Source of the DNA: a virus
Direction: 5' to 3' (one strand)
Length of the DNA: 64,000 nucleotides
IMG/VR virus record: IMGVR_UViG_3300025121_000886
Coordinates: 1-64,000 of that record
The notes under the pieces were generated by a model that was given only the letters and a program-made list of their open reading frames with translations, ran no database searches and had not been told where the DNA came from. The position numbers and the translations under genes are program-made. This document shows positions 3,185 to 51,743 of the stretch, one piece after another (the first letter of the stretch is position 1; each line of letters begins with the position of its first letter).

Positions 3185-4036
3185 ATGAAAATTAGAAAAG
3201 ACGATGAGTTAGGTATTCGCATGAAGTCTTATGAGCACATGACAATCCCAGAGAGGTTTATACCGTTTTTACCGATCATCATAAGAGTTGATGGTAGAAG
3301 TTTTTCTGGATTTACAAGAGGTCTCAAAGAACCTTTTGACGAAAATTTTTCGGATTGTATGATTGAGACGACAAAAGCATTGGTAGAAGAAGCTAATGCT
3401 CTGATGGGTTATACACAATCCGATGAGATATCGCTCTTACTCTATGAGGATAATATAAAATCTCAATTGTATTTTGGAGGTAGAGTTTTTAAAACAATAT
3501 CAAGTTTGGCTTCGACAGCAACCTATGTCTTTAACAACTCTCTATTACCAAAATATCTTCCGGAAAAAGTTGGGAAGTGGGCTCGTTTTGATTGTCGTGC
3601 TTTTAATGTCCCTACCAAGGATGAGGCTGTTAATGAATTCTTGTGGAGAGAATTAGATGCCACAAGAAATAGTATAGAGGGTGCAGCAAGGTCTGTTTAT
3701 TCTCATAAAGACTGTTTCTTAAAAAATTGCAGTATGCTTCAAGAGATGCTTTTTCAGAAGGGGGTAAATTGGAATGATTATCCAGACCGATTTAAGAGAG
3801 GAACTTATATTCAAAAAAGATTGGTTGAAAAGCCATTTACAGAGGAAGAGATTGAATATTTTCCTGAAAAGCATAATGCCCGTAAGAATCCTGATTTGGT
3901 TATAAAAAGGCATGTAATATCTGTGATTCAAATGCCTCCTATTCTTAAGGTTGTGAATAGAGTTGGTGTGTTTTTCAATGGAGAAGAACCTGTTGTTTTA
4001 GAAGAAAAAACAGAAAATAATCGGGGTGTTTTATGA
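3185..4036 (+). CDS. Thg1-family 3'-5' RNA polymerase (tRNA-His guanylyltransferase-like)
   Basis: A 283-aa protein clearly of the Thg1/TLP family, enzymes that add nucleotides to RNA 5' ends in the reverse (3'-5') direction. The diagnostic metal-binding blocks are present: IIRVDGRSFSGFTRGL with Asp36, and GYTQSDEISL with Asp80 and Glu81. The FGGRVFKTISSLAS segment and a bacterial-type WRELDATRNSI ... FKRG region follow. Bacterial Thg1-like proteins mostly repair 5'-truncated tRNAs rather than adding G-1 to tRNA-His; whether this one does is inference. The ATG at 3185 follows GGAGAA (an earlier ATG at 3172 hits a stop at once). The stop overlaps the next gene's ATG (ATGA), so the three genes 3185-4861 look like one operon. 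No tRNA-His gene is visible in the window. Confidence 0.9.
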   Translation: MKIRKDDELGIRMKSYEHMTIPERFIPFLPIIIRVDGRSFSGFTRGLKEPFDENFSDCMIETTKALVEEANALMGYTQSDEISLLLYEDNIKSQLYFGGRVFKTISSLASTATYVFNNSLLPKYLPEKVGKWARFDCRAFNVPTKDEAVNEFLWRELDATRNSIEGAARSVYSHKDCFLKNCSMLQEMLFQKGVNWNDYPDRFKRGTYIQKRLVEKPFTEEEIEYFPEKHNARKNPDLVIKRHVISVIQMPPILKVVNRVGVFFNGEEPVVLEEKTENNRGVL

Positions 4037-6599: not shown

Positions 6600-6708
6600 G
6601 ATTGCCCAGACCGATATTGCTAAAAATTTAACATACGTGGTTTTATCCTATTATAATTTTATACAGAAACCATGCTCGTTCCACAAAATAGAAGAATTAG
6701 GAGGCAAA

Positions 6709-9700
6709 ATGTCTACATTATCCACAAGCACATATACACTCCCGGGTGCATATATTGGGAAAATTATTGAGCCTAACGTTACAGTCTTATCTGGTATACC
6801 TAGATTGCCCTGTTACGTTGGAAAAGGGAGTCGTTTAGCGACCGTTAGAAATGCAGCTATTAGGAGATCTTATAAATCAGATGTTGAATTGACATTTTCT
6901 TCGAGAGCACCTTTTCAAGCTCCATTGACTTATTATGCAGATGGAAATCAAGAGTTAGCAAGACTTTATGATAGTAATGGTGCTGAAATTGATAAAAATA
7001 AATGGCAGTTTAAATTATCTGGAAGTGATTATTCTATTGTTGAATTTGATTCTAGATTTTATGATTCTACAAAAACTTATTATATCGATTATCAATCTGT
7101 AGACCGTACAGTTTTAGATCCTACCCCTTATGAGGATATCAGGACGGTTGATAAGGTATCTGTGACGACAGATACAGAAGAATTTGTTGAATATGAAGAT
7201 TTTATCGTTGTAATGACCTATGATGAATATACGGTAGAAGAAACACAGACAAAACATGATAAAGAGGTTTCTGCTATTGTTCATACTGGAACAGGAACAT
7301 TTACTCATTCTTTGACTGGAACACCTACTCATAAATATAATAGATATTACAAAGTGACATGTATTAGGGCTGTAACAGCTTCTATAGGTGGAGTACTTTA
7401 TTGGTATTCTGTGCCTATATCTGGTGGTAAACTTACAGATAGTCCAACTCTAGACCCAATACAACCACAAAATCCTGTTGATATCACAGATGACCTTGAT
7501 TATAACCTTCATATTCTTAATGTGGAGGCCAATAAAGTTGCAGATCAAGATTTTCTTTTGGAGAATGGTATAACCCTAAGAATAAATACCAATGCCGGTG
7601 CTACAATTGTTCTTAATGATACTTTAGAGTTTAATTCTTATGGACCAGGTATTTTTGAGAGAATAGAAGAATATTCTAATGCTAATCAATATCCAGAAGC
7701 ATATGATTCTATTGAAGAAACTTCTGCTTTGACCAAAACAGGGGAATGGGGGACAGTTTTTGGTGATGCTATAACTTTAACAGCAGATCATATTGCTGTA
7801 GCTGATTTAAGTACTTTAACTGTGACCTGTATTGATGAAGATGGTACATCGACACCTGTAACGACTGCTAAATTAGGTGATGGACCCTATCCTGAAGACA
7901 TGCATCCTGTTGAATTGGCAGCTGATGTACAGGAAAAAGTTAGGGCGGCAGGTGCAGGTGTAACTGAATTAGAAGAATTTACTTGTGTTTATGACCCTTC
8001 TGTTGGTACAGATGGGGCATTTACATGTAGAATCGGTGGTTCGAGTTCTGGAGCATCAGCAGCACAAAGAAGTTTAACTATTGCAGATGCTGTTGGTACA
8101 GTAGGTGCATCTATGAAGTTGACTGCTGCTACAAAAAAATATTCATCGGGTGCAAACTTAACCACAAATGCAGGTTTATCCATTAATGCGACTTCTGCTT
8201 ATACTGGGGATTATAACAAAAATTATAAACTTAGAGTTGTTTCTGTTAACTCTGGGACAGACACAGCAGTTGTTTATTGGACTTCTTATGGGACAAATTT
8301 GGATTCTTCAACATTAGGTTTTAAATCAGGTTATTTTACACTTGATTGGACAGATCCGACGGATGTTGTTAGGGTTGAAATTGAAGAAGGTATTTATGTT
8401 GATTGTGACGTTGATGGTTCAACCAAGATATTACAAGTTGGGGATTCTTGGACAATAGCAGCAAGATGCCCTGTTTTTAGAATTACAGCAAAAGACACGC
8501 GTGATTATACAATTACAGTAGCATCTGTAACCCCCGCCGGAAGTGATCCCACAAAAAGTGGAACGGTAGGTATTTCTTATTATACGAGTACCCCCGAGGG
8601 TGGTTTTGGTTCAACCACATTTAACAATCCCGGTGTTTTAGGGGATATGTCGGCTAATACTGAATTAAGAACCCTTTCTGGTAATTTTGTTATTGCATGT
8701 AGAAATATTGCGGGTGATATTAGGCATTCTGTAACTGTTTCGGGTGCTAATGACAAATGGTCTACCGGTTTGGTAAACACCAATTATATTGATTGGTCTT
8801 TAGGTGAAAGAGTATCTGAAACTTTTCAGACTTCTGATATTTTACATGATGTCTATGGGAACATTACGGGGTATGCCGATACCTACTATGTGATATTAGC
8901 CCATACTGTTTTATCGACCTTAGATGTTGTATCTATCGTTAAAACTGGAAATATTGTTATTTCAGGTTCTATATATGGAACATCTGGTTCACCCTATTTA
9001 TGGTTTACCACAGATCCTGGTGCTGCAATTACTGTGACCTATGATCATCGTGGTGATGAGCCAACCCCGGGGGATATATATTATTTCACGGCTTCTTATG
9101 TAAGACCATCAACGAGTTACGACTCTCCTTTTAGAGTTCTTACCCGAGATGACGCTTTTACATTATTGGCCCCCGCTGCTTCTGATAATGATCTTTATAT
9201 TATGGCTGATCTTGCTTTTGATAATGCTGTATCGGGTATTTATGTATGTCAAGCATCTGATTCAGACCTTGATGGAAATTATACTACTCAAGATTATAAA
9301 AGAGCCATAGAAGCCACAGAAGGACAACCAGAAGTAACTGATCTTATTGTTTTGAATAAAGCTTCTGCTCTTCCTGATGCTATAGCATCTAATGTTCGGA
9401 CGAGTAACCCCTTTGCTAGAAAATTTAGAATGTTATGGTGGGGATGCTCAACTGGAACAACAATAGGGAGCGAGACAGAATCAGGTACTTTGATCTATAC
9501 TGCAAGGAAAACCCTTCAAGTTTATGGGAATTCACCAGCGCATGGTACAAGAGTATTGGTAGCACCCACGACAGCTACAAAGACAATAATACTTCCAACG
9601 GGTCAAGCTTATGCATGTCCTCTTAATGGTTCTTTTGTTGCAGGTCAAATAGCTGCTTTAAATGCTTCTTTTTCTGAACCCGCAGATACCCTTCTTTGGA

Positions 9701-10203
9701 AGACGTTGCCTGGTTTTGATGAGATAGAGGTATATACCACTCCAGAAAATATTTTATTAGGTGGGGCTTCTATATTATTTATGGAAGATATTGGTTCTGG
9801 TGTGTATCGATGTGGTGAATCTATCACAGTAGATACGAGTTCCATTGAATATCATGAAGTATCTGCGATGAATCAACAAATATATGTTACTGCCTATGTT
9901 AGACAGTCTGTTGAAGAAGCTGTTGTATCAATGGTACCTGATGGTGTTCCAGACGGTCTTGCTATGGTTCGCGGGGCGGTTGTTTTAGCTCTTAAAACAT
10001 TGTTAAGCCAGAATAAGATTGCTACATATGAGGACGATCAAGGAAATGAACGACAATTAAATCCGATTACAGATGTTATTGTATTTAGGGATACAACAGA
10101 TAGAACTTTATATCACTTCAAGTATGCCTATTACCTCAGATATCCTATCAAAAGATTATTTGGGCTTTATACAGTAGACTCTAACAATTTTGCGAACGCT
10201 TAA
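6709..10203 (+). CDS. contractile tail sheath protein, unusually large
   Basis: A 1164-aa sheath subunit that polymerises around the tail tube and contracts on infection. The C-terminal 130 residues carry the conserved sheath domain (a VTAYVRQSVEEAVVSMVPDG helix region, LKTLLSQNKIATYED, then ITDVIVFRDTTDRTLYHF). The N-terminus YTLPGAYIGKIIEP is also typical. The ATG at 6709 follows an excellent AGGAGG; an upstream extension to 6637 lacks one. Most phage sheaths are 400-700 aa. Here roughly 500 extra residues of Ser/Thr/Gly-rich beta sequence (about residues 180-760) are inserted and probably form surface domains on the sheath. It is followed 12 bases later by a small tagged protein, and the tail tube comes two genes further on. 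Confidence 0.9.
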   Translation: MSTLSTSTYTLPGAYIGKIIEPNVTVLSGIPRLPCYVGKGSRLATVRNAAIRRSYKSDVELTFSSRAPFQAPLTYYADGNQELARLYDSNGAEIDKNKWQFKLSGSDYSIVEFDSRFYDSTKTYYIDYQSVDRTVLDPTPYEDIRTVDKVSVTTDTEEFVEYEDFIVVMTYDEYTVEETQTKHDKEVSAIVHTGTGTFTHSLTGTPTHKYNRYYKVTCIRAVTASIGGVLYWYSVPISGGKLTDSPTLDPIQPQNPVDITDDLDYNLHILNVEANKVADQDFLLENGITLRINTNAGATIVLNDTLEFNSYGPGIFERIEEYSNANQYPEAYDSIEETSALTKTGEWGTVFGDAITLTADHIAVADLSTLTVTCIDEDGTSTPVTTAKLGDGPYPEDMHPVELAADVQEKVRAAGAGVTELEEFTCVYDPSVGTDGAFTCRIGGSSSGASAAQRSLTIADAVGTVGASMKLTAATKKYSSGANLTTNAGLSINATSAYTGDYNKNYKLRVVSVNSGTDTAVVYWTSYGTNLDSSTLGFKSGYFTLDWTDPTDVVRVEIEEGIYVDCDVDGSTKILQVGDSWTIAARCPVFRITAKDTRDYTITVASVTPAGSDPTKSGTVGISYYTSTPEGGFGSTTFNNPGVLGDMSANTELRTLSGNFVIACRNIAGDIRHSVTVSGANDKWSTGLVNTNYIDWSLGERVSETFQTSDILHDVYGNITGYADTYYVILAHTVLSTLDVVSIVKTGNIVISGSIYGTSGSPYLWFTTDPGAAITVTYDHRGDEPTPGDIYYFTASYVRPSTSYDSPFRVLTRDDAFTLLAPAASDNDLYIMADLAFDNAVSGIYVCQASDSDLDGNYTTQDYKRAIEATEGQPEVTDLIVLNKASALPDAIASNVRTSNPFARKFRMLWWGCSTGTTIGSETESGTLIYTARKTLQVYGNSPAHGTRVLVAPTTATKTIILPTGQAYACPLNGSFVAGQIAALNASFSEPADTLLWKTLPGFDEIEVYTTPENILLGGASILFMEDIGSGVYRCGESITVDTSSIEYHEVSAMNQQIYVTAYVRQSVEEAVVSMVPDGVPDGLAMVRGAVVLALKTLLSQNKIATYEDDQGNERQLNPITDVIVFRDTTDRTLYHFKYAYYLRYPIKRLFGLYTVDSNNFANA

Positions 10204-11187: not shown

Positions 11188-11688
11188 ATGGCAAGTAACC
11201 CACATGGTGTTAAAGTTCAAAGTTTAGATTGGAGTCACAAATATGCTCCAACCACGATGACCTATCATGGCATCGTGTTAAAAATGGATGGAAGAGAAGT
11301 AGGCCGTATAACAAGCTGGAATCCTCAACCTTATGGACGAGATGGTGAGCATGTTTATGAGTTGTCCAAAACTACTTTTGGCCGACCAGTAGATTATGTT
11401 CCTGGAAAAAATAATACTTATACTATATCATGTAATCGTGTTGAAGTATGGCTCGATGAATTTGAGCGAGCGATTGGCTTTGATGATGTATGGGTTGATC
11501 TTTGTGATCAGAGAAGACCTTTTACAATTACAGAAACTCTTTATAAGGGTGACGTGAGATATAGAGAATGGACTTATACAGGATGCTGGATCACGAGCAA
11601 AAACCCCGATGCGTACGACGCTGAGGGTAATGCTAAAATTATAGTTTCAGCAGAAATTTCTTATGTAGCTCGTACAAAAACCTTATAG
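11188..11688 (+). CDS. tail tube protein
   Basis: A 166-aa protein of the size and pattern of myovirus tail tube subunits, which stack as hexamers inside the sheath. Supporting segments are LKMDGREVGRITSWNPQ near residues 30-46, YGRDGEHVYELSKTTFGRPVD, and a C-terminal beta strand pair ending AEISYVARTKTL. A strong AAGGAGA site precedes the ATG. Gene order (sheath, tube, assembly proteins, tape measure) agrees with the assignment. Confidence 0.88.
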   Translation: MASNPHGVKVQSLDWSHKYAPTTMTYHGIVLKMDGREVGRITSWNPQPYGRDGEHVYELSKTTFGRPVDYVPGKNNTYTISCNRVEVWLDEFERAIGFDDVWVDLCDQRRPFTITETLYKGDVRYREWTYTGCWITSKNPDAYDAEGNAKIIVSAEISYVARTKTL

Positions 11689-12548: not shown

Positions 12549-13958
12549 TCAATCCTCAAATAATTTTCTCATTGGCAGATAATTATATTTGATGAATCTG
12601 CTTATTCTATTTCTTGCCATTTCAACATAACTTGGATTTAACTCAATCCCTATAAAATTTCTCAACAATTTTTTAGCCATTATACCTGTCGTCCCGCTAC
12701 CCATAAATGGGTCTAAAACTATTCCAGGAATAAATTTTGAATTACAAGAACATTGAGAATATCCTTGAAATTCTGCGCTCGAATAGACAGTAGGATTATG
12801 ACCTTGTTTTAATCTCTTTTCATTTTCTGTATATACTTCTAATTCAAAAAATCCACCCAATGGTGTTTTAGCATTGGGTATCCCTTTGAAACCTAATATA
12901 CCTTCAGGGTTATTGGTTGAATACAATTTCCTTTTTAGTTCTCCACATTTTTCACAAACATATTCGGGGCAACCGGCTAATATAGGAGTTTCAATCAATT
13001 TTTCTGGAAATACGGCAAAATGGGCTTCTTTAGATGACGCTGGGTTTATGCTCCATACAGTTCTTTTGTTTCTACCATATAATCCATAACAATGTGTGTT
13101 TTCGGCATTTTCTCCCCTGTATTTATCAGCATTTGGCTTGCATGTATTCTTAGATCGACTTCCCCATTTAGACTTTTTATTTCTTTCATATTCAACATTT
13201 ATCGTCTTAAAGGGTTCGAATTGTTGTTCAAAATAATAATCTGGATTTTTAGAGAAAAAGAACAAATACTCAAAATCATTTGAAAATCGATCTTTAGCCG
13301 AACTCGGTAGGCAAGAAGGTTTATGCCAAATTATGGTATTTCTAAGAATCCAGCCTCTACTTATCATCTCTATGGCAAATCTAAATGGGATTAATAACAA
13401 GCTCTTTCTAGGGTAATCAATTTTAGGTTGTTTCCATTTATTAGCCTTAGCCTTTTTTCCTCTTACCCAATCTCCTCCAGCACCACCTGAATTAGAATAA
13501 GTATCTCCAAGGTTTACCCAGCAAGTTCCATCATCTTTTAGAACTCTATGAACTTCATCAAATATATCACAAAGATGGGTGATATACATATCAAAATGGG
13601 GCTCATTTCCTAAGGAGCCTTCCCAAACTCGACATTTTTTACAGCATCTTCCCAATGTTTTTGTCTGTCCAGCACCACTTCCTATAGCATTTTTGTATTT
13701 TGTTTGTTCTACTTGTCCCGGTTTTAAAGGTGTCATGTAATCATCAAATTCGTGATCACAATCGTTTTCTTCCCAGGTTAATGGTTTGGTATCATAATCT
13801 CTCAATCCATAATAGGGCGGTGAGGTTACACACACATCTAAGCTTTTTTCAGGCAATGTTCTTAAAACGTCAACAGCATGACCTTGTATTATTGTATTAA
13901 TGTGTGGTCTGATTATATTGTTTATTGAGCTTTGTTTATTTATCACATCTAGTGTCAA
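12549..13958 (-). CDS. DNA (cytosine-N4 type) methyltransferase with Cys clusters
   Basis: A 469-aa SAM-dependent DNA methyltransferase. The catalytic motif is SPPY at residues 46-49 (SPPY rather than DPPY favours N4-cytosine) and the SAM-binding motif is DPFMGSGTT at about 416-424. Between them is a long target-recognition region with CCKKCRVWEG near residue 110, CEKCGELKRK near 340 and CSCNSK near 405, likely zinc knuckles. It lies on the opposite strand within the tail module, divergent from the gene at 14054. No endonuclease partner is visible, so it probably protects or marks phage DNA as an orphan enzyme. N4 versus N6 specificity is not proven by sequence. Confidence 0.88.
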   Translation of the reverse strand: MTLDVINKQSSINNIIRPHINTIIQGHAVDVLRTLPEKSLDVCVTSPPYYGLRDYDTKPLTWEENDCDHEFDDYMTPLKPGQVEQTKYKNAIGSGAGQTKTLGRCCKKCRVWEGSLGNEPHFDMYITHLCDIFDEVHRVLKDDGTCWVNLGDTYSNSGGAGGDWVRGKKAKANKWKQPKIDYPRKSLLLIPFRFAIEMISRGWILRNTIIWHKPSCLPSSAKDRFSNDFEYLFFFSKNPDYYFEQQFEPFKTINVEYERNKKSKWGSRSKNTCKPNADKYRGENAENTHCYGLYGRNKRTVWSINPASSKEAHFAVFPEKLIETPILAGCPEYVCEKCGELKRKLYSTNNPEGILGFKGIPNAKTPLGGFFELEVYTENEKRLKQGHNPTVYSSAEFQGYSQCSCNSKFIPGIVLDPFMGSGTTGIMAKKLLRNFIGIELNPSYVEMARNRISRFIKYNYLPMRKLFED

Positions 13959-14053
13959 TTTAATTTATCCTTAAAATAAGTTATTCTGACATACTCCCAA
14001 AGCTAAAGCATTTTGGGGTTCTAAAGTTGCTGCTCTTGTAATATTATATTTTT

Positions 14054-14935
14054 ATGGAGAAAACTTTGAAAATACCAGAGTTATTAAAAAGTTTAGATGA
14101 ATTAAAGCAAAAATATTCTTTAAATAAGAAGAATATTGATGAAGTAGTTAACAAAAAAGTTGTTGGATCGACCACCATACCACCTTTAATCATCCCCTCT
14201 AAAAAGGAACTTCGTTCGATCACAATGTTATTCAATAAGTTTGGAAAACATCTTTTATCGGAGGAGTTCGATACATTAAAACAATATGATAAAATCGTCA
14301 TCCTTATCCATACTCTTTCACAGGGTTTTGATAAATTATCTTCCTTGCCGGAAAATATGAATGTCTCAGAATTTTGTTATCTTTGTCATAAATTATTTGA
14401 ATTGGATTTTATATTAAAATGGTGTGAGAAGAAAAAGCGAGGTAATTTATCTTATGTTCTTAATGAGATTAGTGATGGTAATGTAAAGATTGATATATCG
14501 GATAAAGATCTTTATTTAAAACAAGTTGAAGATTTTTTTACTGGTGTTATCTCAAATCCTTTCAAGGATAAATTTCTTAAAAATGAATTAGCTGGAATTT
14601 TACGTTTACCGGTGGTGTGTAATAACTTTTATTTCTCAAATCAAGAATCTTTAGATTCTTATCAATGTGATTACATTTTAAATCGATACCTTTTGATAAA
14701 GGATCAATTTTTATTGGGTATACCAGATGACTTAAAGGGTTATGAGGATATCTTTAATAAAATATGGTCTACCTTCAAACTTTTTTTGGTAAAGGGGGGT
14801 AACAATGAGTTTGATTCTTTATCGAAGTTTGAGATATCAGATAGCTATATAAACATCGACAATTATAATTATTGTCTTCTTTTCCCAAATTCTAGAATGC
14901 CTAAAATATTGAACTGGGGTATTTTTAATGAGTAG
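14054..14935 (+). CDS. hypothetical tail-assembly region protein, 293 aa
   Basis: A largely helical, lysine-rich protein with no signal peptide. Residues 1-30 form an amphipathic helix (IPELLKSLDELKQKYSL). The rest has Cys/Phe-rich helices (SEFCYLCHKLFELDF) and a C-terminal tyrosine-rich stretch. Its end overlaps the start of the next gene by eight bases. Together with the next four genes it fills the space between tail tube and tape measure, where phages encode tape-measure chaperones and baseplate hub proteins. I cannot assign a family. Confidence 0.6.
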   Translation: MEKTLKIPELLKSLDELKQKYSLNKKNIDEVVNKKVVGSTTIPPLIIPSKKELRSITMLFNKFGKHLLSEEFDTLKQYDKIVILIHTLSQGFDKLSSLPENMNVSEFCYLCHKLFELDFILKWCEKKKRGNLSYVLNEISDGNVKIDISDKDLYLKQVEDFFTGVISNPFKDKFLKNELAGILRLPVVCNNFYFSNQESLDSYQCDYILNRYLLIKDQFLLGIPDDLKGYEDIFNKIWSTFKLFLVKGGNNEFDSLSKFEISDSYINIDNYNYCLLFPNSRMPKILNWGIFNE

Positions 14936-15500
14936 CAATGCTATTGATATATTATATGATCTGAAAAAACATTTCGGTCTATGCTCAGAAAATTTATTTT
15001 CAGTCATTGATGCTGAGCATAAATGGAGTTTTTACCCCCCGGATAGTTTAGGTATAGAAATACTATTAAAATTGACAGATATTAATAGGGATGTTTCCTC
15101 ATATAAAATAGCTATTGTTGCATCTTTTCTGGCAAAAATAGATGAAGAACCAATCTATAAAATAATTGGAATAAATATTGATAAAAAGTTAGGAGAGACA
15201 GATAAATCTATAAGATTAGCAACCTCTTCTGATTGGTTTGACATGCTACAGAAAGAGTTTAAGCCCGATCTGGTTGACAAATTATATGAACATTATGATG
15301 AAAAATATGGTGAAAGATTAAAATTGTTATTATCTTCTGATACAACATCTTATGTGTGCAAAAAGTGCAAGAGTAATTATAGTCTGAAGAAGAAAGATAT
15401 TGTGTACTTTTGTCAAAAATGTGGTAACAAACTATTTCTCTTAGATGAAAAGAACAATCCACAGGACCCTTTGGTGCGCTCACGGAAGACCCTAGCTTAG
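14928..15500 (+). CDS. zinc-finger tail assembly protein; upstream partner of a -1 frameshift
   Basis: A 190-aa zero-frame product with an N-terminal alpha/beta domain (HKWSFYPPDSLGIEILLKL ... FLAKIDEEPIY). A helix LVDKLYEHYDEKYGERL follows, then a C-terminal zinc finger CKKC ... CQKCGNKL. The same order, with a finger ending C-x-x-C-G-x-x-L, occurs in the gene at 16069, so the two look like diverged copies. Near the 3' end lies C CCT TTG (15467-15473) and an 11-bp stem. A -1 slip there joins this gene to the open frame 15449-16036 to give a protein of about 369 aa. By analogy with the lambda G/G-T pair this may be a tape-measure chaperone set; that role is inferred. Confidence 0.75.
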   Translation: MSSNAIDILYDLKKHFGLCSENLFSVIDAEHKWSFYPPDSLGIEILLKLTDINRDVSSYKIAIVASFLAKIDEEPIYKIIGINIDKKLGETDKSIRLATSSDWFDMLQKEFKPDLVDKLYEHYDEKYGERLKLLLSSDTTSYVCKKCKSNYSLKKKDIVYFCQKCGNKLFLLDEKNNPQDPLVRSRKTLA

Positions 15501-16036
15501 AAGTCCGTGGGCGCGTTTTAGCATATTGTGGAATACTCCCGACTGATCCTGTTGTTAAGGATATGACAACCTCACTGTGGCATTTTATGTGGGTTTGGAT
15601 AAAAAAACTGAAAGATGAGGAGTTTACCCGTTTTGAAAAATCAATGGGTATATTGTGGGATGAATCTGATTTCAATGCATTTTCTCCCGGTCCAGAGAGT
15701 ATGAATAAACCAGAAAGCAGTTCTATTAGGATTCCAGTTACATTTGCATGTGATCCGACTTTATACAAGTTTTTAAAGGAAAAAGCAGCTGCTACTGCCG
15801 CAAAGAGGATGAATATGGGTTTAGAGGAGGGTGCGCCTATTGTAGAATTAGGTGAACTCCCCAGACATATGTTTGTTAAAGCGATGCGTATGTTAGAGGG
15901 AGGGGTTGATCCTCTAAGTTATATAAAAAAGTTTAAAGAAGAAAGAACACAAAATATAAAAAATGAAAAAATGGGAGAGATCGACAATGAAGTAGAAGAA
16001 AATGAGCCTGAAATAGACGAGATTAGTGATACTTAA
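15449..16036 (+). CDS. frameshift extension of the zinc-finger assembly protein
   Basis: The -1 frame relative to 14928 is open from 15449 (after a TGA at 15446) to 16036. It includes coding-like residues before the first ATG at 15563 (GALTEDPSLEVRGRVLAYCG). That ATG has AAGGA almost touching it, so independent initiation looks poor. The extension adds about 187 residues: a Trp-rich helical part (MTTSLWHFMWVWIKKLKDEEF), a middle segment and an acidic C-terminus (NEVEENEPEIDEISD). Expression by slippage at 15467-15473 is the simplest reading. Alternatives are a stand-alone protein from 15563 or a sequence error. Confidence 0.7.
   Translation, partial: KEQSTGPFGALTEDPSLEVRGRVLAYCGILPTDPVVKDMTTSLWHFMWVWIKKLKDEEFTRFEKSMGILWDESDFNAFSPGPESMNKPESSSIRIPVTFACDPTLYKFLKEKAAATAAKRMNMGLEEGAPIVELGELPRHMFVKAMRMLEGGVDPLSYIKKFKEERTQNIKNEKMGEIDNEVEENEPEIDEISDT
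15467..15514 (+). promoter_or_regulatory. candidate -1 programmed frameshift signal (slippery heptamer plus stem-loop)
   Basis: The heptamer C CCT TTG (15467-15473) is in the correct zero-frame phase X XXY YYZ. After a -1 slip the codons CCC TTT are read and translation enters the 15449-16036 frame. Downstream, 15476-15486 (GCGCTCACGGA) pairs with 15504-15514 (TCCGTGGGCGC), 11 bp with one G-T wobble and a 17-base loop. This is by far the most GC-rich stem in the neighbourhood. The spacer is only 2 bases to the full stem, or 7 bases to its upper six pairs. Confidence 0.7.
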
Positions 16037-16068
16037 ATGATCTTAATTTATTAATTATGAGGTAAATC

Positions 16069-16881
16069 GTGGATACAAAAAATAAAAAACCGTTTGTTAA
16101 AAATATCATAGCTGATGATGAAAATCCCCTTAATAGATTGGGAGAAGTTGTGGATGTTAGAAAATTAGAAGAGATTGAGATTAAAAAGAAGAAAGCTGAA
16201 TTGGCAGGTGCTTCTGGATTACTCCCTCTCACAGAAGAAGAATTTGAGAAAATAGCTTCTCAACCAGATCAACCTCCTTTAGAAGAGGCTTCTAATAAGG
16301 CCGTTTTAGCAGAAAAAGAAGTTGGAGAGAATAACACTTCTATTAAAGATGAGACCTTGATAATACGGGAAAAATCAAGTATTCTAATGGAAAAACTTAA
16401 AAAGAAGTTCAGTCTAGAATCTGTTAAGATTGTTGAGGAAGTATCTGGTATAAATTTTACTTTTAAGGGATTATCTAAAGCAGAGGTAGAATGGGGTACT
16501 GAAATGGTATCTCGTTGGGCATATTCTGAGACAGGTTTTAATCTTGGTCTAGAAGACGTTGTAGCTGCATCTTCTATATGGGAAATAGATGGGATGCCCA
16601 CCCATGAATTGTTTGATGTTAAAAAACGTGAAGATGATTCAGATTTATCTTTACATATTACAACCGCAGACAAGGTTTTAGTGTTCCTTCGAGAGCAATC
16701 TAATAGTAAGTTGATAGATATACTTTATAATATTTATCAAAATAAAATTGAACCAAAATTAAAAATTTCAGGGGTGTTAGAGTATATATGTACAAAACAT
16801 GATATTACTTATGTTATGTATGAAAAAAAACCAGGTAATTATTTTTGTAAACTTTGTGGAGAACCATTATTATCCACTTGA
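16069..16881 (+). CDS. zinc-finger tail assembly protein, paralogue of the 14928 product
   Basis: Starts at GTG (16069) after a TGAGGT site; 270 aa. An N-terminal 100 residues of charged, low-order sequence (RKLEEIEIKKKKAEL) is followed by the shared domain: INFTFKGLSKAEVEWGTEM, a YSETGFNLGLEDVVAASS helix, IWEIDGMPTHELF, a helix SKLIDILYNIYQNKIEPKL and a C-terminal finger (YICTKH ... CKLCGEPL). The match of segment order with the 14928 product suggests duplication around the frameshift cassette. Possible role: baseplate hub or tape-measure assembly factor. Confidence in the gene is high, in the role low. Confidence 0.7.
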   Translation: MDTKNKKPFVKNIIADDENPLNRLGEVVDVRKLEEIEIKKKKAELAGASGLLPLTEEEFEKIASQPDQPPLEEASNKAVLAEKEVGENNTSIKDETLIIREKSSILMEKLKKKFSLESVKIVEEVSGINFTFKGLSKAEVEWGTEMVSRWAYSETGFNLGLEDVVAASSIWEIDGMPTHELFDVKKREDDSDLSLHITTADKVLVFLREQSNSKLIDILYNIYQNKIEPKLKISGVLEYICTKHDITYVMYEKKPGNYFCKLCGEPLLST

Positions 16882-16900
16882 AAATAGGAGTAAATAATTC

Positions 16901-17290
16901 ATGAGTAAAACCCACCAAGAACATCTTGCCCACATTGTAAATATAACAGAAAATCTTGATATGGAACAAGCTAATAGAGTAAGAACTGCTTTTATTAAAG
17001 ACTTTGTAGGAAAAGGAACGTCTTTTCTCATCGGTCGTTTAGCCTCTATGTTTAAACTTACTATGATAGGTTCATCTATAGGATTTAGATTTACTGGAAA
17101 TCCTCATGGATTTACAAAATATTTGTTGAAATCTTTTTTAGAAAAGAAGTTTGGTCCTGTAACGATAAGGACATATAAAAATTTATTAGAGATCGTGATG
17201 ACTCTAGATTTCACAAATAGTCCGGAGGTGAGAGAGCATATAAAACAAGATCTGGAAACTTTTAAGAAGAATAATGGGGAAAAAGAATAG
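16901..17290 (+). CDS. hypothetical tail-assembly protein, 129 aa
   Basis: A helical protein lying directly before the tape measure gene, with an ATG preceded by AATAGGAG. Segments include LDMEQANRVRTAFIKDFVG, a glycine-containing core (FLIGRLASMFKLTMIGSSIG) and a basic C-terminal half. Its place next to the tape measure and its small size suit a tape-measure chaperone or baseplate hub component, but no family match is evident. Confidence 0.6.
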   Translation: MSKTHQEHLAHIVNITENLDMEQANRVRTAFIKDFVGKGTSFLIGRLASMFKLTMIGSSIGFRFTGNPHGFTKYLLKSFLEKKFGPVTIRTYKNLLEIVMTLDFTNSPEVREHIKQDLETFKKNNGEKE

Positions 17291-17348: not shown

Positions 17349-20300
17349 ATGCCTGGTCCAAATATACCTCCAAATATACCACCTGATAATACGCCACCTG
17401 CTTCGAATACAGCCTCTATTTTGGAGTCATTACGTCAAAAAAAGGCATTAGATGACACCAAAAAAGCTAAAAGGGATTTAGATATAGCTAGATCTAAACT
17501 AGAACGTGCAAAAGTTTCAAAAAATGAAATTTCTAAAAAGTCTGGTTTGGGTAAAACATCTACAGTTGACTTAGCTAATATATCTAAGGCAAATACAGCG
17601 GTGGTAGAGGCTGCCCGAAATGTAGATATTTTAACCAAGGCTTTTGAGGGTTATAGGAAAACATTAGGTACCGTTGTTAAAGATACGGGTGGTTTAGGTT
17701 TTGATAAAACATCACAAGACATAAAACTTTTTAATATGTCTTTGGAAAAAACACAAAAGAAATTATCTTTAACCAGGTCAGCGATTGATCTATACTCCAA
17801 AGCAGATAAAGCTACTGGAAGTACGGGCTTTGGTGGTTGGGGTGGTATAGTTACAGATGCTGCTGATCAAGCTGTAGAATCAGTAAAAAGGGCTGGATCT
17901 GAAACCGCTGCTTCTGCTGGAAAAACTTATTCACAAATAGCTCGACGGAGAAAGACTTATTTTTTAGAAAGTTTTGTATATGGATCAGCTCTTACAAATT
18001 CTGTTAAAGCTACAACAGAAGCTATGGGAGATCAAAAATCAGTAACAGAATCTATGGTAGATAGTTTAAATGTGTTTGGCACAAAATTATCTAATTTGGT
18101 TACTGGTCAACATGCTGTAGCTGATACATCAGGATCTATAGCAGATGGTTTGACAGGTATTGGAGAAACAGCTGCTACAACAACAGTAAAATTAGCTTTA
18201 TTGAAACCTAAATTTTATGGTACTGTCCAGATGATGAAGGCTGGTGGTATGGCCATAAAAGAAATATTCAAGAAAACAAAAGAATTAATACCAACCTTGA
18301 CCGCAGCGGGGTTGGCATTAAAGGCCGTTTCTGATATTTCTGAATCAGGTGAATCTGCCTTAAAGAATTTTTATCGAGCTGGTGTAGAACCAGCTCCAAA
18401 GATGGCCAAAACTTTAGGTGAATTGTCCAAGCGTATGGGGACAAACATAAAGTTGAATGAGTTAGCAGCAAGGGCGGCAGTCGATTTAGGTATGGAATAT
18501 GATCAGGTCAGAGAATATGCTCAAAAGTTACAATATGAACTAAATAATACAGATCCAGCTTTGTCTTCAGCAGAAGCTATGGCTAAATTGACCAAACAGA
18601 CAATATTAGCAGCGAGAGCCCTGGAGATGGATGCTGGAGAAGCTATTCAGTTTGTGACAACCAGGACAAACAAATTTGGTGAGTCTTCTGAAGAAGCTGT
18701 GGGTCAACTGAAGGGGATAGTTGATCAGATAAGAAAGACAAATGATTCTGCATTAAAAGCCGGTTTTACTCGTGGTGATCTTTTTCCTGAAGATTTGAGT
18801 AAGCTTATAATTCAAGCTTCTAACGAGACTGGTGCTTATGGTCAAAATCTTGAATTATTGACTCATATATCCACAAAAACTTTTCAGACTGCTAAAAAAG
18901 CTGGAATGACCTATAATGAATCTGTAGAAGGTACTCAAGCAGTTATGAAAGCTTTGACGAGTACTGAAAATGAATTCTTGCGACAGGATGTTGGAACAAA
19001 GTTATATAAGAAGCTTATAGCAGGAGGAGATGCTTATATAGAGCAATTAGGTGATATAGCCCCAGAACAGAAAAAGAGATTAAGAGAAATAGTTGAAGAT
19101 GTTAAAAATGGAAAATCTGCTACCTATGATGTTCAACAATCTATTTATAGCTATCTTTCACAAACTACAGAGGGTGTAAAATTACAATTAGCAGATATGC
19201 AGAAGTTCGGTGATTCAGGCATCGGTGGAAAGATGCTGGAAAATTTATATGGTGTTTCTGCCTCGGGTTCTAAAACATTACAAATGATGTCTCGCGGTGG
19301 TATGTTAAAAGGTCTTATCTCAGATTTTGAGTCTTTACGTGGTAAAAACAAAGGGATGTTAAGTGAGACAGAGGCTCAGATGATGAGATGGCCTAAAACG
19401 TGGGCTGGAACATTTGCGGGCTATCTAAGTTCTATGGGTATGGATTTAGAAAAAGGACTTGTTGGGAGTCCTATTATGCAATATTTACAGAGGGGTGAAG
19501 AAATAACAAACAACATTAAAGAAAGTATAATAGGAACTTTTAAAAATCCAGCTATTACAGCTACAATTGGTCTTTTGATGGCAGCCGGAACTGTTCTAGC
19601 CCCATTATTAGCCGGTAAGTTGGTGAAGAGTGTTACAGGTGTAGATATCACGGGTCATATAAAGAAAGGTGTTGTGGGTGGTTTTGAGAAGTCTAAAGAA
19701 ATATATAGTAAGGTTAAGAATGAAGGTCTGAAAAAGACTTTATCTGATGGTGTCCAATGGGCAGGTAAAAAAAACAGAGAAGTCTATGGTAAATTAGCAA
19801 AGACTGGTCCTTTTAAAGCTATTATTGGTGTTGGTAATACTGTAGGAGATGCTATATCAAGTGCAATGAGAACCGCCGGTTCTTTTGTTGCTAAACAATT
19901 TTATAATGCTATCCATGGTAAAGGTATCACCGGAGCTAGAGAAAAATTAGGGAAGTTTGGAGAAAAGGCTAAGAATGTTGGAAAACAGGGTGTGGAAAAA
20001 GTAAGAAGTGGTCTTGGTCTATCAGAAAGAGGAAAATATGATAAAGGCGGTAGACGTGCTACACCTGAAGAAAGGGAAATGTTAAGAAGGACGGGTCTTC
20101 CCGGTTTTAATCATCCAGGTTTATCAGGTGAAGACATTTCTGGACGAGGGGGTAGGAATTCTTCGAGAAGGAGTAGCCTGAGTAATCTTGCAGATAAATC
20201 AAAAAAATTTGGTAGAAGGGGTTTGGATTCAGTTAATAAGTTTGGGAGAGGGGCTGAAGGGTTTGGTAAGAGAGGTCTTGGTGCTGTGGGTAAATTCGGT

Positions 20301-22988
20301 AAGGGATTAGGTGGCTTGGCATCTTCTGGGTTAAGCGCAGCGGTATTGGGTGGTAGTATGTTACTCGGTGGTGGATTGGATATGGGTGAGATGGAAAATA
20401 TAAATCCTGTTGATGAAATTATTGGGGGATTGCAGGGAGGTGAGGGGGACGCTAAAGAGCATGAAAAGGCGGAGAAAAAAGAAGAGGCTAAAAAACGAAG
20501 GGTAGAAAAAAAGGAAGCATTAAAAGCCAGCTTATCTAGAGGGAAAGAATCGGTAAAAGGGTCATTAAAAGGTGCTTCTGAGGAGTTGAAGAGAATATCT
20601 GGGAGAGGTGCTGATCTTGTTTTAGGTGGGAGAGTAAATGTTGATGAAATGGTAGATTCACCTAGAAAACAGAGGATAATCGAGTTAAGACAGAAACAAG
20701 AAGAAAAGAAGGCATTAAAAGAAGCTCAATTGGTCGCTGATCGAGAAAAAAAACAAGCAGAGGCCGTAAAGAAAAAAGAAGCTAATATAGAGGCAAAAAA
20801 AGCCAGGGAAGTAAAAAAAGCCGAGAGAAAGGCAGCATTACAAAGATATAAGCAAAAATTATTACCAGACGGTGGTATTAAACCTAGCAAATTAGGTTTT
20901 ATGGGGAAAATATTTGGTGGTAAAAAGAGTGCTATACCATCAAAGGGGTTATCTTCTATAGCCATGAAAGGTTTGAAGTTTGGAGCAAAAGGTTTAGGTA
21001 CTGCCGCGATGATGATACCTCTTGCTTCTTTATCTTCAACGGCTGAAGCCATACAAACTGGTGAAAAAGACAAATTAATAAAATCCCTGGGAGGTATGGC
21101 TGGGGGTATTGCTATGGGGGCAGCTATAGGGTCTGTTGTCCCTGTGGTAGGAACAATGATAGGTGGGACAATAGGTGCTTTTGCTGGAGAGGCTTTAACT
21201 GAAAAAATAATGGAGTTCGCTAAAGAGGGTTCTAAAACCCCAGATGAGAAGTTAGTTGCTTCAATAAGACAAAAGGTCAAAGAAGCTATCGCCAGTGAAA
21301 ATATTGATCTTGGAAAATCAATAACAGAAACCATATCAAAAAATGTAAATCTTGAAAAAGATAAAAAATGGTATACTAAATTTATGGAGGTCATTGTAGC
21401 CACAGCTGGTGCATCCGCAGATGATTTTTCTTCTATAGGAAAAGGTTCTATAGAAGATATGAAAAATGAAAAAAAGTTAAAAGAACAGATGGGTGAATCT
21501 GTAGATATCGGTAAAAACATCATAGAAGAGGTTAAATTAAGAGTATCTGAGAAAGAATCTGAGATAGAAAAGGGGAGTGCTAAAGTTATTGAGTTAAAGA
21601 AAAAGATATCTGAAGAAAAATATGGTTTTATGAAAGATGAGTATGAAAAGCAATTAGCTTCTGAGGAAGTTACTCTAAAAAATAATCAGGAATCTTTAAA
21701 AGGCTTAAAAGTAAAGTCAGCTGATTATGCCAAAACTTTTGGGAATAAAGAGTATGAGAAAGCACAGGCAGATTATATAAATGCTACGACTATTATAAGA
21801 GATATAGAAGAGAAGGCATTAGAGAAGAAAAACATAGCAGAGACGAAAAAAAAAGAATTTTTAGATAAGATGGCGGAGGCTCAAAAGATAGAAGATGAGC
21901 GTCAACGTAAATTAGCTGTTGATAAATTAATGATAGAGGATGCTCGATATGTAGAACAGGCAGATTTGGAGTCACGGGAGATAAATGGAATATATGAAAC
22001 TGCTAAAAAAACAAAAGAAGAATCAGAGCTTATTTTACAAGCACAGGTTGGTCGGGATGCTGTTAATAGATTGAATGCACAATATATGGAGACAAAAGAT
22101 AAAGCAGTTAAAGCACGAGAAGCATACAACAAAAAATGGAATGCTTCTGTAAATATAGAAAATGAAGTTGAAAAAGAAGCTGTACAAGCTAAGCTTAAAG
22201 AAGAAGAGGCCGAAATTATCCGATTAGAAGATACTGCTAAGGGGTTCAAGGATGCTGCTGTAGCAAAGACAAAGGAGCAGAATACAACTTTAGCTAAACT
22301 TCAATATAAAGGTGCTGATGCTGAGACTTTAAAGAAGTTGGGTGTGACCCCAGAGAAGAAAAAAGGTGGGGGAAAGAAGGTAAAAACTCAAGGTTATTTG
22401 AGTATGAAAGATATCATAGCAGGTAGAACACCTGAAGAAGTTATAGCAGGTGCTAAAAAACAACCCCCTGTAGGTACAGTTGGTGTCTCTGGCTTAGAAA
22501 ATAAGCCAGTTGCAAAGACGGATACTTCTCTATTACAAGAGACAAAAGACAGAACTTTTCAGAGTTTGCCCGATGATCTGAAAAGAGATGAGAGGTTTTT
22601 AGCCACTTTAACAGCTAATACAAATGCTCTGATAGCCAATAAAGAAGATATCTTACCCACTTTAGAAGATAAAGATAAAGCCGATTCTAAAAAAATTGCT
22701 ACTGAGTGGGCTAAAAATGCAGCTACCTCCACATTAATGAGTAAAGAAGATCAAGATGCTGCTAAAGATGTTATATTAAGAAAAGAGAGAGAAGAAAGGC
22801 CGGGGTCTCTCATTGCTAAGAGAGAAGAGGCTAAAGAAAAAAATAACATTTTGAAAGAGATTGGGGCAGATGTTAAGAATGTTAATACAGCTGATGATTC
22901 GGCTATGATAAAATTTACAAATGTATCTCTAATGCTGGCCGCTTTCGGTAAAAAGACTGCTGAAATAGCACCAAGTCTCACAGCATAA
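17349..22988 (+). CDS. tape measure protein
   Basis: At 1879 aa this is the longest gene. It sets tail length and is threaded through the tail tube before release into the cell. Evidence: long charged coiled-coil stretches (for example about 1040-1170 and 1390-1640), Gly/Ala-rich hydrophobic segments at about 734-757, 990-1012 and 1247-1283 that may become membrane-active, a Pro-rich start (PGPNIPPNIPPDN), and its position after tube and chaperone-like genes. Using the usual 0.15 nm per residue, the tail would be roughly 280 nm, long for a myovirus. The central region is highly basic (KEEAKKRRVEKKEALK). No peptidase or lysozyme domain is evident. Confidence 0.88.
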   Translation: MPGPNIPPNIPPDNTPPASNTASILESLRQKKALDDTKKAKRDLDIARSKLERAKVSKNEISKKSGLGKTSTVDLANISKANTAVVEAARNVDILTKAFEGYRKTLGTVVKDTGGLGFDKTSQDIKLFNMSLEKTQKKLSLTRSAIDLYSKADKATGSTGFGGWGGIVTDAADQAVESVKRAGSETAASAGKTYSQIARRRKTYFLESFVYGSALTNSVKATTEAMGDQKSVTESMVDSLNVFGTKLSNLVTGQHAVADTSGSIADGLTGIGETAATTTVKLALLKPKFYGTVQMMKAGGMAIKEIFKKTKELIPTLTAAGLALKAVSDISESGESALKNFYRAGVEPAPKMAKTLGELSKRMGTNIKLNELAARAAVDLGMEYDQVREYAQKLQYELNNTDPALSSAEAMAKLTKQTILAARALEMDAGEAIQFVTTRTNKFGESSEEAVGQLKGIVDQIRKTNDSALKAGFTRGDLFPEDLSKLIIQASNETGAYGQNLELLTHISTKTFQTAKKAGMTYNESVEGTQAVMKALTSTENEFLRQDVGTKLYKKLIAGGDAYIEQLGDIAPEQKKRLREIVEDVKNGKSATYDVQQSIYSYLSQTTEGVKLQLADMQKFGDSGIGGKMLENLYGVSASGSKTLQMMSRGGMLKGLISDFESLRGKNKGMLSETEAQMMRWPKTWAGTFAGYLSSMGMDLEKGLVGSPIMQYLQRGEEITNNIKESIIGTFKNPAITATIGLLMAAGTVLAPLLAGKLVKSVTGVDITGHIKKGVVGGFEKSKEIYSKVKNEGLKKTLSDGVQWAGKKNREVYGKLAKTGPFKAIIGVGNTVGDAISSAMRTAGSFVAKQFYNAIHGKGITGAREKLGKFGEKAKNVGKQGVEKVRSGLGLSERGKYDKGGRRATPEEREMLRRTGLPGFNHPGLSGEDISGRGGRNSSRRSSLSNLADKSKKFGRRGLDSVNKFGRGAEGFGKRGLGAVGKFGKGLGGLASSGLSAAVLGGSMLLGGGLDMGEMENINPVDEIIGGLQGGEGDAKEHEKAEKKEEAKKRRVEKKEALKASLSRGKESVKGSLKGASEELKRISGRGADLVLGGRVNVDEMVDSPRKQRIIELRQKQEEKKALKEAQLVADREKKQAEAVKKKEANIEAKKAREVKKAERKAALQRYKQKLLPDGGIKPSKLGFMGKIFGGKKSAIPSKGLSSIAMKGLKFGAKGLGTAAMMIPLASLSSTAEAIQTGEKDKLIKSLGGMAGGIAMGAAIGSVVPVVGTMIGGTIGAFAGEALTEKIMEFAKEGSKTPDEKLVASIRQKVKEAIASENIDLGKSITETISKNVNLEKDKKWYTKFMEVIVATAGASADDFSSIGKGSIEDMKNEKKLKEQMGESVDIGKNIIEEVKLRVSEKESEIEKGSAKVIELKKKISEEKYGFMKDEYEKQLASEEVTLKNNQESLKGLKVKSADYAKTFGNKEYEKAQADYINATTIIRDIEEKALEKKNIAETKKKEFLDKMAEAQKIEDERQRKLAVDKLMIEDARYVEQADLESREINGIYETAKKTKEESELILQAQVGRDAVNRLNAQYMETKDKAVKAREAYNKKWNASVNIENEVEKEAVQAKLKEEEAEIIRLEDTAKGFKDAAVAKTKEQNTTLAKLQYKGADAETLKKLGVTPEKKKGGGKKVKTQGYLSMKDIIAGRTPEEVIAGAKKQPPVGTVGVSGLENKPVAKTDTSLLQETKDRTFQSLPDDLKRDERFLATLTANTNALIANKEDILPTLEDKDKADSKKIATEWAKNAATSTLMSKEDQDAAKDVILRKEREERPGSLIAKREEAKEKNNILKEIGADVKNVNTADDSAMIKFTNVSLMLAAFGKKTAEIAPSLTA

Positions 22989-50498: not shown

Positions 50499-51743
50499 TT
50501 GTATAAAACGCAATCAAATCAGATTAAGAATATGAATAAAGACACCTATAATCTTTTAAGAAGGTTGTGTTGGCATTCAGCGCGTTTGTACAATTACGGT
50601 CTATATACTGTAAGACAGAATTATTTTGAGACGAAGACATATTTACCTTATGTGCAAAATTATCATTATTGTAAGACCAATGAGAATTTTAAGGTTTTAC
50701 CAGCAGCTGTAGCACAGCAGACGTTAAAGGTTGTAGATAGGAGCTTTAAGTCTCTTTTTGGGCTTTTGAATGCTAAGAAGCACAGTAAATATCAGAGTCG
50801 TGTGTCTATCCCACATTATTTACCAAAAGATGGATATTTTCAGGTCATGATACCTAACAATGGGTTTCAGATTAAGGGTAATGAGATAAACATAGGTATA
50901 TCGAGGTTTTTGAAGGAAGATACTGGGATTAAAAATATAGTATTAGATTTTCCGACACAGATTAATGCTAAAGATGTAATAGAAGTAAGGATAATACCGC
51001 AACAGAAGGCACATTACTTTAAAATGGAGGTGGTATATGAGGTAAAAGAACAAGAATTAAAGCTAGAGCATAAAAATGTTTTATCGATTGATATAGGTCT
51101 AAATAATTTAGCGACATGTTTTGATACAAAGAACAATAGGGCTTTCATCTTAGATGGAAGGCGTTTAAAATCAATAAATTACTATTGGAATAAACAAAAC
51201 AGTAAGCTACAAAGTATCAAAGATAAACAAAACATCAGGAATTATACGAAACAACAATTTTTACTGAAGAGGAAGAGAGAAAATAGGATTAAAGACATAA
51301 TAAGAAAGAGCTCTAAGTATATTTCTGATTATTGTATTAAGAATGACATAGGGACGATAATTATAGGACACAATAAAGGTTGGAAGCAAGACATTAATCT
51401 TGGAAGGGTGAATAATCAGAAGTTTGTACAGGTACCTTTTGGATATTTGATGTCAAGCCTTGAGTCTAAATGTGAAGAGTTTGGTATGAAGTATTCAGAG
51501 ATACAAGAGTCCCATACTTCTCTATGTTCGGCTTTAGATAATGAGGAAGTTAAACATCATGATGTTTATATGGGGAAGCGTATATACAGAGGGCTTTTTA
51601 GAAGTAGAGAAGGAAAGCTCGTTAATGCTGATGTTAATGGTGCTCTAAATATTGCTAGGAAGTCAAAAGTAACTGCAATGGAGGTAACTTCTGAGCAGGT
51701 AATGGGTATTGTGGCATACCCTGTAAGAATAAGGGTATTTTAG
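50499..51743 (+). CDS. tnpB: TnpB (IS200/IS605 OrfB) RNA-guided nuclease family, altered RuvC-II
   Basis: A 414-aa TnpB. These are RNA-guided DNA endonucleases, relatives of Cas12, that help the transposon persist. The TTG start at 50499 (MYKTQSNQIK) follows AGGAA and matches the usual N-terminus of this subgroup (NLYNYGLY-like LYNYGLYTVRQ, KVVDRSFKSLF, HYLPKDGYF). RuvC-I is LSIDIGLNNLAT with Asp198, RuvC-III NADVNGALNI with Asp378. At RuvC-II, where most TnpBs have Glu, the text is IIIGHNKGWKQD with His291-Asn292. A Glu at about 337 (IQESHTS) may substitute, as proposed for rearranged TnpB groups. The Cys4 finger is degenerate, with only one Cys. Active or dead nuclease cannot be decided by eye. 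Confidence 0.9.
   Translation: MYKTQSNQIKNMNKDTYNLLRRLCWHSARLYNYGLYTVRQNYFETKTYLPYVQNYHYCKTNENFKVLPAAVAQQTLKVVDRSFKSLFGLLNAKKHSKYQSRVSIPHYLPKDGYFQVMIPNNGFQIKGNEINIGISRFLKEDTGIKNIVLDFPTQINAKDVIEVRIIPQQKAHYFKMEVVYEVKEQELKLEHKNVLSIDIGLNNLATCFDTKNNRAFILDGRRLKSINYYWNKQNSKLQSIKDKQNIRNYTKQQFLLKRKRENRIKDIIRKSSKYISDYCIKNDIGTIIIGHNKGWKQDINLGRVNNQKFVQVPFGYLMSSLESKCEEFGMKYSEIQESHTSLCSALDNEEVKHHDVYMGKRIYRGLFRSREGKLVNADVNGALNIARKSKVTAMEVTSEQVMGIVAYPVRIRVF

What the first reader, a model, noticed from the sequence alone, without database searches (positions are those of the whole stretch)
15449..15514. Candidate -1 programmed ribosomal frameshift at C CCT TTG before the tape measure
The zero-frame gene 14928-15500 overlaps an open -1 frame 15449-16036 whose coding-like part begins before any good start codon. 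A phase-correct X XXY YYZ heptamer (15467-15473) and an 11-bp stem (15476-15486 with 15504-15514) lie in the overlap. Frameshifts between tail tube and tape measure are an established theme (lambda G/G-T and many relatives), but the partners here, a zinc-finger protein and a Trp-rich acidic extension, do not look like the classical ones.
Basis: seen in the sequence. Interest (0 to 1): 0.8.

Follow-up and report, generated by a model that had tools for sequence, protein, structure and literature searches.

The report
Conserved frameshift in phage tail chaperone
An uncultured contractile-tailed phage makes a second, longer version of its tail-building helper protein by having some ribosomes slip back one base at C CCU UUG; the same slip position recurs in dozens of diverged relatives, so this is a real but known kind of trick, here with an unusual slip site, a co-evolving RNA hairpin and a duplicated helper gene.

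Summary
C CCT TTG (15467-15473) lies in phase in gene 14928-15500. The -1 frame is open 15449-16036 and has no ATG/GTG/TTG before 15563. The 11-bp stem 15476-15486/15504-15514 is present.

One genome alone is weak: an in-phase heptamer in so short an overlap has about a 15% chance. Comparison settles it. Twenty distinct viruses (tube proteins 25-56% identical where given) carry an in-phase C CCT TTN here, each followed by a -1 extension. Nineteen more carry A AAA AAN or G GGA AAN. No relative had the halves fused in frame or separated. The stem recurs in three relatives with four compensated base pairs; there the spacer is 5-7 nt.

The extension's best structural hit (E 0.02, weak) was Bacillus phage G gp182. 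That protein is annotated as a joined (two-frame) tail assembly chaperone directly before the tape measure, and it carries the same GxxxxDPxxxxM motif.

This is therefore a lambda G/GT-type -1 programmed frameshift. The partners are divergent but classical; a zinc ribbon was added to G. The window also holds a second, unshifted G copy (16069-16881).

New member of a known kind. Slippage itself, its efficiency and the function are inferred, not measured.

The parts
14928..15500 (+). Zero-frame gene: gpG-like tail assembly chaperone, 190 aa, helical core (residues 56-136) plus C-terminal zinc ribbon (CxxC at residues 144 and 162)
   Evidence: HMM built from relatives' zero-frame proteins without W: E 2.2e-12; model pLDDT 72; weak zinc-ribbon Pfam matches below cut-off
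15467..15473 (+). Slippery heptamer C CCT TTG (CCU/UUG re-pair as CCC/UUU)
   Evidence: sequence; in-phase CCCTTTN in 20 distinct viruses: Z = A 10, G 6, T 2, C 2
15476..15514 (+). 11-bp RNA stem-loop, 2 nt after the heptamer: likely -1 frameshift stimulator
   Evidence: -19.3 kcal/mol; four pairs with changes on both sides among W, L065, L066, L067
15449..16036 (+). -1 frame: GT-like extension (189 aa from the slip), fused to residues 1-181 of the zero-frame protein
   Evidence: HMM of relatives' extensions: E 2.3e-29, only significant hit in the window; residues 10-50 after the slip modelled at mean pLDDT about 95 although residues before 33 precede the first start codon
15563..16036 (+). 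ORF a gene caller would annotate as a separate gene (false start at ATG 15563)
   Evidence: no usable Shine-Dalgarno sequence; conserved DP motif and helix lie upstream of it
16069..16881 (+). Second, non-frameshifted copy of the gpG-like chaperone, 270 aa, also ending in a zinc-ribbon-like segment
   Evidence: relatives' HMM E 1.3e-16; BLASTP to 14928-15497 E 4e-10
17349..22988 (+). Tape measure protein (1879 aa)
   Evidence: position, length and helical/repetitive composition; no family match other than a weak glycine zipper
11188..11688 (+). Tail tube protein used to find relatives
   Evidence: weak PHROG tail tube match; 53% and 25.5% identical proteins upstream of the equivalent gene pair in L004 and Virus Rctr197k

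Best explanation
Programmed -1 ribosomal frameshift in a tail assembly chaperone gene. Most ribosomes translate 14928-15500 and make the short chaperone (G-like, 190 aa). A fraction, with CCU in the P site and UUG in the A site, is held by the hairpin 15476-15514. The two tRNAs re-pair one base back on CCC UUU, and these ribosomes continue to 16036, making a fusion of about 370 residues (G-T-like). As inferred from lambda, G-type domains coat the tape measure (17349-22988), and the T domain of the rarer fusion recruits tube subunits, so a fixed ratio of the two is needed. Shown here: anatomy, phase, conservation of the slip position, covariation of the stem, homology of the extension to an annotated frameshift-extended chaperone. 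Inferred: that slippage happens, its efficiency, and the binding roles.
For: In-phase C CCT TTN followed by a -1 extension in 20 distinct viruses, and A AAA AAN or G GGA AAN in 19 more. Relatives' extension HMM hits 15449-16033 in the window at E 2.3e-29 and nothing else significantly. The invariant DP and conserved residues lie before the first start codon. Stem covariation, four double changes against a shuffled mean of 1.2. Strong Shine-Dalgarno-like sequence 9-15 nt upstream in several relatives, such as L004, L006, L054, L055, L056, L066, the other known bacterial stimulator. Top structural hit (E 0.02) is Bacillus phage G gp182, annotated tail assembly chaperone, joined from two pieces, directly before the tape measure; profile match to it E 1e-7 in a one-sequence search. 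C_CC.U_UU.G and C_CC.U_UU.A shift above 0.10% in E. coli without stimulators (PMC4066793). Lambda model: PMC5009743.
Against: UUG is not among the best A-site codons in E. coli (UUY is better). The stem, if fully paired, begins only 2 nt after the heptamer (5-7 nt in L065-L067). No obvious Shine-Dalgarno-like stimulator upstream in W (-3.4 kcal/mol). Structure matches are not individually significant. No expression data; host unknown.
Confidence: 0.94

Rival explanations
1. Two separate genes: the downstream one starts at ATG 15563 by re-initiation or its own ribosome site, and the overlap is fortuitous.
For: A gene caller gives ORF 15563-16036, and Virus Rctr197k is annotated this way.
Against: No Shine-Dalgarno sequence at usable distance. 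The conserved, confidently modelled part starts about 23 codons upstream. The overlap with an in-phase heptamer is kept in 39 viruses.
Confidence: 0.03
2. Sequencing or assembly error, or a frameshift mutation that broke one ancestral gene.
For: Metagenome contig; the two frames differ by a single base step.
Against: A second contig is identical over 10.6 kb (possibly not independent). Diverged viruses have the same out-of-frame arrangement with slippery sites.
Confidence: 0.01
3. Transcriptional slippage rather than ribosomal slippage.
For: Some relatives have A7 or T7 runs (L023) where polymerase slippage is possible.
Against: CCCTTTG has no run longer than three; the position of the codon boundary and the hairpin fit tRNA re-pairing.
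Confidence: 0.01
4. The hairpin is an intrinsic terminator or attenuator, not a frameshift stimulator.
For: G+C-rich stem followed by GTTTTA.
Against: Not recognised by the terminator scan (its loop limit of 8 would exclude it anyway). Only four T in a row; it would cut off the tape measure operon. Covarying homologues sit just after the heptamer in L065-L067.
Confidence: 0.05

Closest known systems
Lambda gpG/gpGT tail assembly chaperone frameshift (Xu, Hendrix and Duda; reviewed in PMC5009743)
   Same: Gene pair between tail tube and tape measure, short chaperone plus rarer -1 extended fusion, slippery heptamer near the end of the first gene.
   Different: No sequence similarity found to lambda proteins with the family libraries; heptamer C CCU UUG; stem-loop stimulator; zinc ribbon on the G part; contractile tail inferred from the large upstream gene; second G copy in the operon.
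Bacillus phage G gp181/gp182 (JN638751)
   Same: Annotated tail assembly chaperone with joined gp182 directly before tape measure gp183; extension with the same GLPPSDPRVSQMNDAQW-type motif; -1 in-phase A AAA AAC.
   Different: Different heptamer; G part much shorter and not recognisably similar by profile (E 0.012); no zinc ribbon.
Virus Rctr197k genes 069/070 (KX853510)
   Same: In-phase C CCT TTA at locus L005 15680 joining two genes annotated separately; homologous extension.
   Different: Annotated as two hypothetical proteins; no zinc ribbon; G+C-rich genome; no covarying stem established.
E. coli dnaX -1 frameshift
   Same: Combination of X XXY YYZ, upstream Shine-Dalgarno-like element and downstream hairpin, each present in some of these viruses (from general knowledge).
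   Different: dnaX shifting gives a shorter product at about 50%; here it gives a longer, probably minor one.

Membership tests
lambda G/GT-type tail assembly chaperone -1 frameshift | Located between major tail tube gene and tape measure gene | tested here: met
   Tube 11188-11688, tape measure 17349-22988, pair in between; same order in L004 and L065
lambda G/GT-type tail assembly chaperone -1 frameshift | Slippery heptamer in phase at the end of the first gene with an open -1 frame continuing | tested here: met
   C CCT TTG 15467-15473; conserved position in relatives
lambda G/GT-type tail assembly chaperone -1 frameshift | Second frame lacks its own start and ribosome site | tested here: met
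   First start codon 32 codons in, no Shine-Dalgarno sequence
lambda G/GT-type tail assembly chaperone -1 frameshift | Sequence or structure homology to known tail assembly chaperones | tested here: inconclusive
   No Pfam, PHROG or NCBIfam chaperone match. Extension: top structural hit E 0.02, not significant, but it is phage G gp182 and other tail/tape-measure chaperones follow; profile match to G gp182 E 1e-7 in a one-sequence search
lambda G/GT-type tail assembly chaperone -1 frameshift | Minor fusion product (a few per cent) actually made, both products absent from virions | not testable with these tools
   needs expression and virion proteomics
X XXY YYZ -1 PRF with stimulators | Downstream structure and/or upstream Shine-Dalgarno at suitable spacing | tested here: inconclusive
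   Covarying stem present, spacer 2 nt in W but 5-7 nt in L065-L067; no clear upstream Shine-Dalgarno in W

The most novel reading that the evidence does not exclude
After duplication of the G gene the phage has partly uncoupled the two products. The unshifted copy (16069-16881) supplies most of the plain chaperone, while the shortened copy with the slip site (14928-15500) mainly serves to make the frameshift fusion, so the G:GT ratio is set by two genes and not by the slip rate alone. The zinc ribbon shared by both copies would be a new interaction module.
Probability: 0.25. Interest if true: 0.55.

Novelty: new member of a known kind. Interest (0 to 1): 0.4.

Why it matters
It extends the tail chaperone frameshift to a broad, almost unnamed group of large phages whose proteins match no chaperone family, giving an annotation handle (position, heptamer, GxxxxDPxxxxM motif) and correcting a two-gene annotation in Virus Rctr197k. 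It gives a natural series in which the slip position is fixed while the heptamer (CCCTTTN, AAAAAAN, GGGAAAN, CCTAAAA, TTTTGA) and the stimulator (hairpin or Shine-Dalgarno) have been exchanged, useful for studying how a needed protein ratio is kept. C_CCU_UUR was not found reported for phage tail chaperones in the papers searched (a limited library). The duplicated chaperone makes the ratio-control idea testable.

Tried and rejected
BLASTN of 14000-17000 and tblastn of the extension against 50,697 phage records: nothing. Family libraries for all chaperone parts: nothing but zinc ribbons and a few unnamed weak PHROG matches. PDB structure search with the zero-frame model: only zinc-ribbon segments; viral library likewise. 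A literature hit for CCCTTTA with frameshift (SPP1) was a terminator sequence, irrelevant. MAFFT alignments A9 and A12 put gaps inside the stem of W; the pair count was done on A13 with three N placed in the loop of W, where the codon alignment puts the missing codon. Genome contigs gave one tube relative on a Planctomycetota MAG contig without a detectable chaperone pair; host not inferred from it. Loci without a detectable chaperone pair in the stretch held (L064, L068, L069, L070, L074, L076, L078, L081) neither support nor refute. L091 was not examined.

Full report
What is there. The window is part of a 93 kb uncultured virus record. The gene 14928-15500 ends ...NNPQDPLVRSRKTLA*, and C CCT TTG at 15467-15473 is in phase with it. 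The -1 frame is open from 15449 to 16036 without ATG, GTG or TTG until 15563. The 11-bp stem 15476-15486/15504-15514 is real and, at -19.3 kcal/mol, the most stable hairpin of its arm length in the 64 kb.

Is it more than chance in one genome? Barely. In-phase X XXY YYZ heptamers occur at about 1% of codons, so an overlap of this size has one with about 15% probability. A second contig (L001) is identical over 10.6 kb, which speaks against a simple sequencing error but is not an independent virus.

Relatives. Relatives were found with the tail tube protein 11188-11685, which does not depend on the frameshift region. Downstream of the tube, the equivalent gene ends in an in-phase slippery heptamer and continues in the -1 frame in 39 distinct viruses. 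Twenty have C CCT TTN (W, L004, L005 = Virus Rctr197k, L006, L007, L020, L054-L058, L060, L061, L063, L065-L067, L071, L072, L075; Z = A 10, G 6, T 2, C 2). Nineteen have A AAA AAN or G GGA AAN. L018 has T TTT TGA at the stop; L034 and L037 have C CTA AAA. L023 shows a +1/-2 relation at a run of seven T, which could be a different shift or an assembly error. No relative had both parts in one frame or cleanly separated. Loci in which an independent HMM scan found no chaperone pair are listed under tried and rejected.

The extension. The extensions align over their first 50 residues, with DP nearly invariant. In the window this motif lies before ATG 15563. An AlphaFold2 model gives mean pLDDT about 95 for residues 10-50 after the slip, of which 10-32 precede that ATG. 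ATG 15563 has no Shine-Dalgarno sequence at usable distance while several neighbouring genes do. An HMM built without the window's sequence hits 15449-16033 at E 2.3e-29 and nothing else significantly in the whole window.

What family. No curated family names these proteins. The structure search of the extension against viral models returned as its best hit Bacillus phage G gp182 (E 0.02, not significant alone), with other tail or tape-measure chaperones of Staphylococcus, Lactobacillus and Bacillus phages among the top eleven. In the phage G record gp181/gp182 are annotated tail assembly chaperone, gp182 is joined from two pieces, and gp183, the tape measure, follows. The phage G extension carries GLPPSDPRVSQMNDAQW after an in-phase A AAA AAC and matches the extension HMM (E 1e-7, single-sequence search).

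Stimulators. In L065, L066 and L067 the same hairpin follows CCCTTTG with a 5-7 nt spacer. On a codon-guided alignment 93% of cells pair, and four of eleven pairs show changes on both sides (shuffled mean 1.2; slid controls 0-1). There are only four sequences, so this is good but small evidence. In the window the spacer is 2 nt if all eleven pairs form. Other relatives have strong Shine-Dalgarno-like sequences 9-15 nt upstream (L004 -9.3, L006 -12.2, L055 -11.8, L056 -11.3, L066 -11.5 kcal/mol; 5% background in the window -7.3), and L013 and L015 have 13-bp stems. Slip-site strength: C_CC.U_UU.A and C_CC.U_UU.G are among heptamers giving more than 0.10% -1 shifting in E. coli without stimulators, weaker than UUY motifs (PMC4066793).

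Mechanism. The best reading is the lambda G/GT scheme: the short chaperone coats the tape measure, the rare fusion recruits tube subunits (PMC5009743). Anatomy and evolution are shown here; slippage, its level and the binding roles are inferred.

What is different here. The zero-frame protein carries a C-terminal zinc ribbon (two CxxC), seen also in L063, L071 and L072 and not in most relatives. The window also has a second chaperone copy, 16069-16881, which matches the relatives' profile better (1.3e-16) than the frameshifted copy (2.2e-12), shares the zinc-ribbon region, and has no heptamer or extension. In L004 and L065 the tape measure follows the extension directly. This suggests duplication with division of labour, which is not tested.

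Noticed in passing
window 16069-16881: A second, unshifted copy of the G-like chaperone, with a zinc-ribbon-like end, lies between the extension and the tape measure; absent at this position in L004 and L065.
   Followed up: partly
window 16901-17290: 129-aa protein of no known family between the second chaperone copy and the tape measure; absent from that position in L004 and L065.
   Followed up: no
window 12549-13958 (minus strand): DNA methylase (N6_N4_Mtase, E 1e-43) inserted on the opposite strand between the tube gene and the chaperone region.
   Followed up: no
window 3185-4036: Thg1-like tRNA-His guanylyltransferase (Pfam E 1.5e-27) in a phage genome.
   Followed up: no
window 50499-51743: TnpB-like OrfB_IS605 protein with Cas12f1-like TNB domain.
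   Followed up: no
L023 6930-7050: The chaperone halves are in a +1/-2 relation at a run of seven T: different shift, polymerase slippage or assembly error.
   Followed up: partly
L005 (KX853510) 15189-16423: Virus Rctr197k genes 069 and 070 are annotated as separate hypothetical proteins but are joined by an in-phase C CCT TTA -1 site.
   Followed up: yes
L007 14022-18776 (minus strand): Large protein with portal-like ends that seems to contain two intein-like insertions; read by eye only.
   Followed up: no
window 6637-10203: 1188-aa protein in the tail sheath position, longer than the 669-930 aa counterparts in L023 and L034, and matching no Pfam or PHROG family.
   Followed up: no
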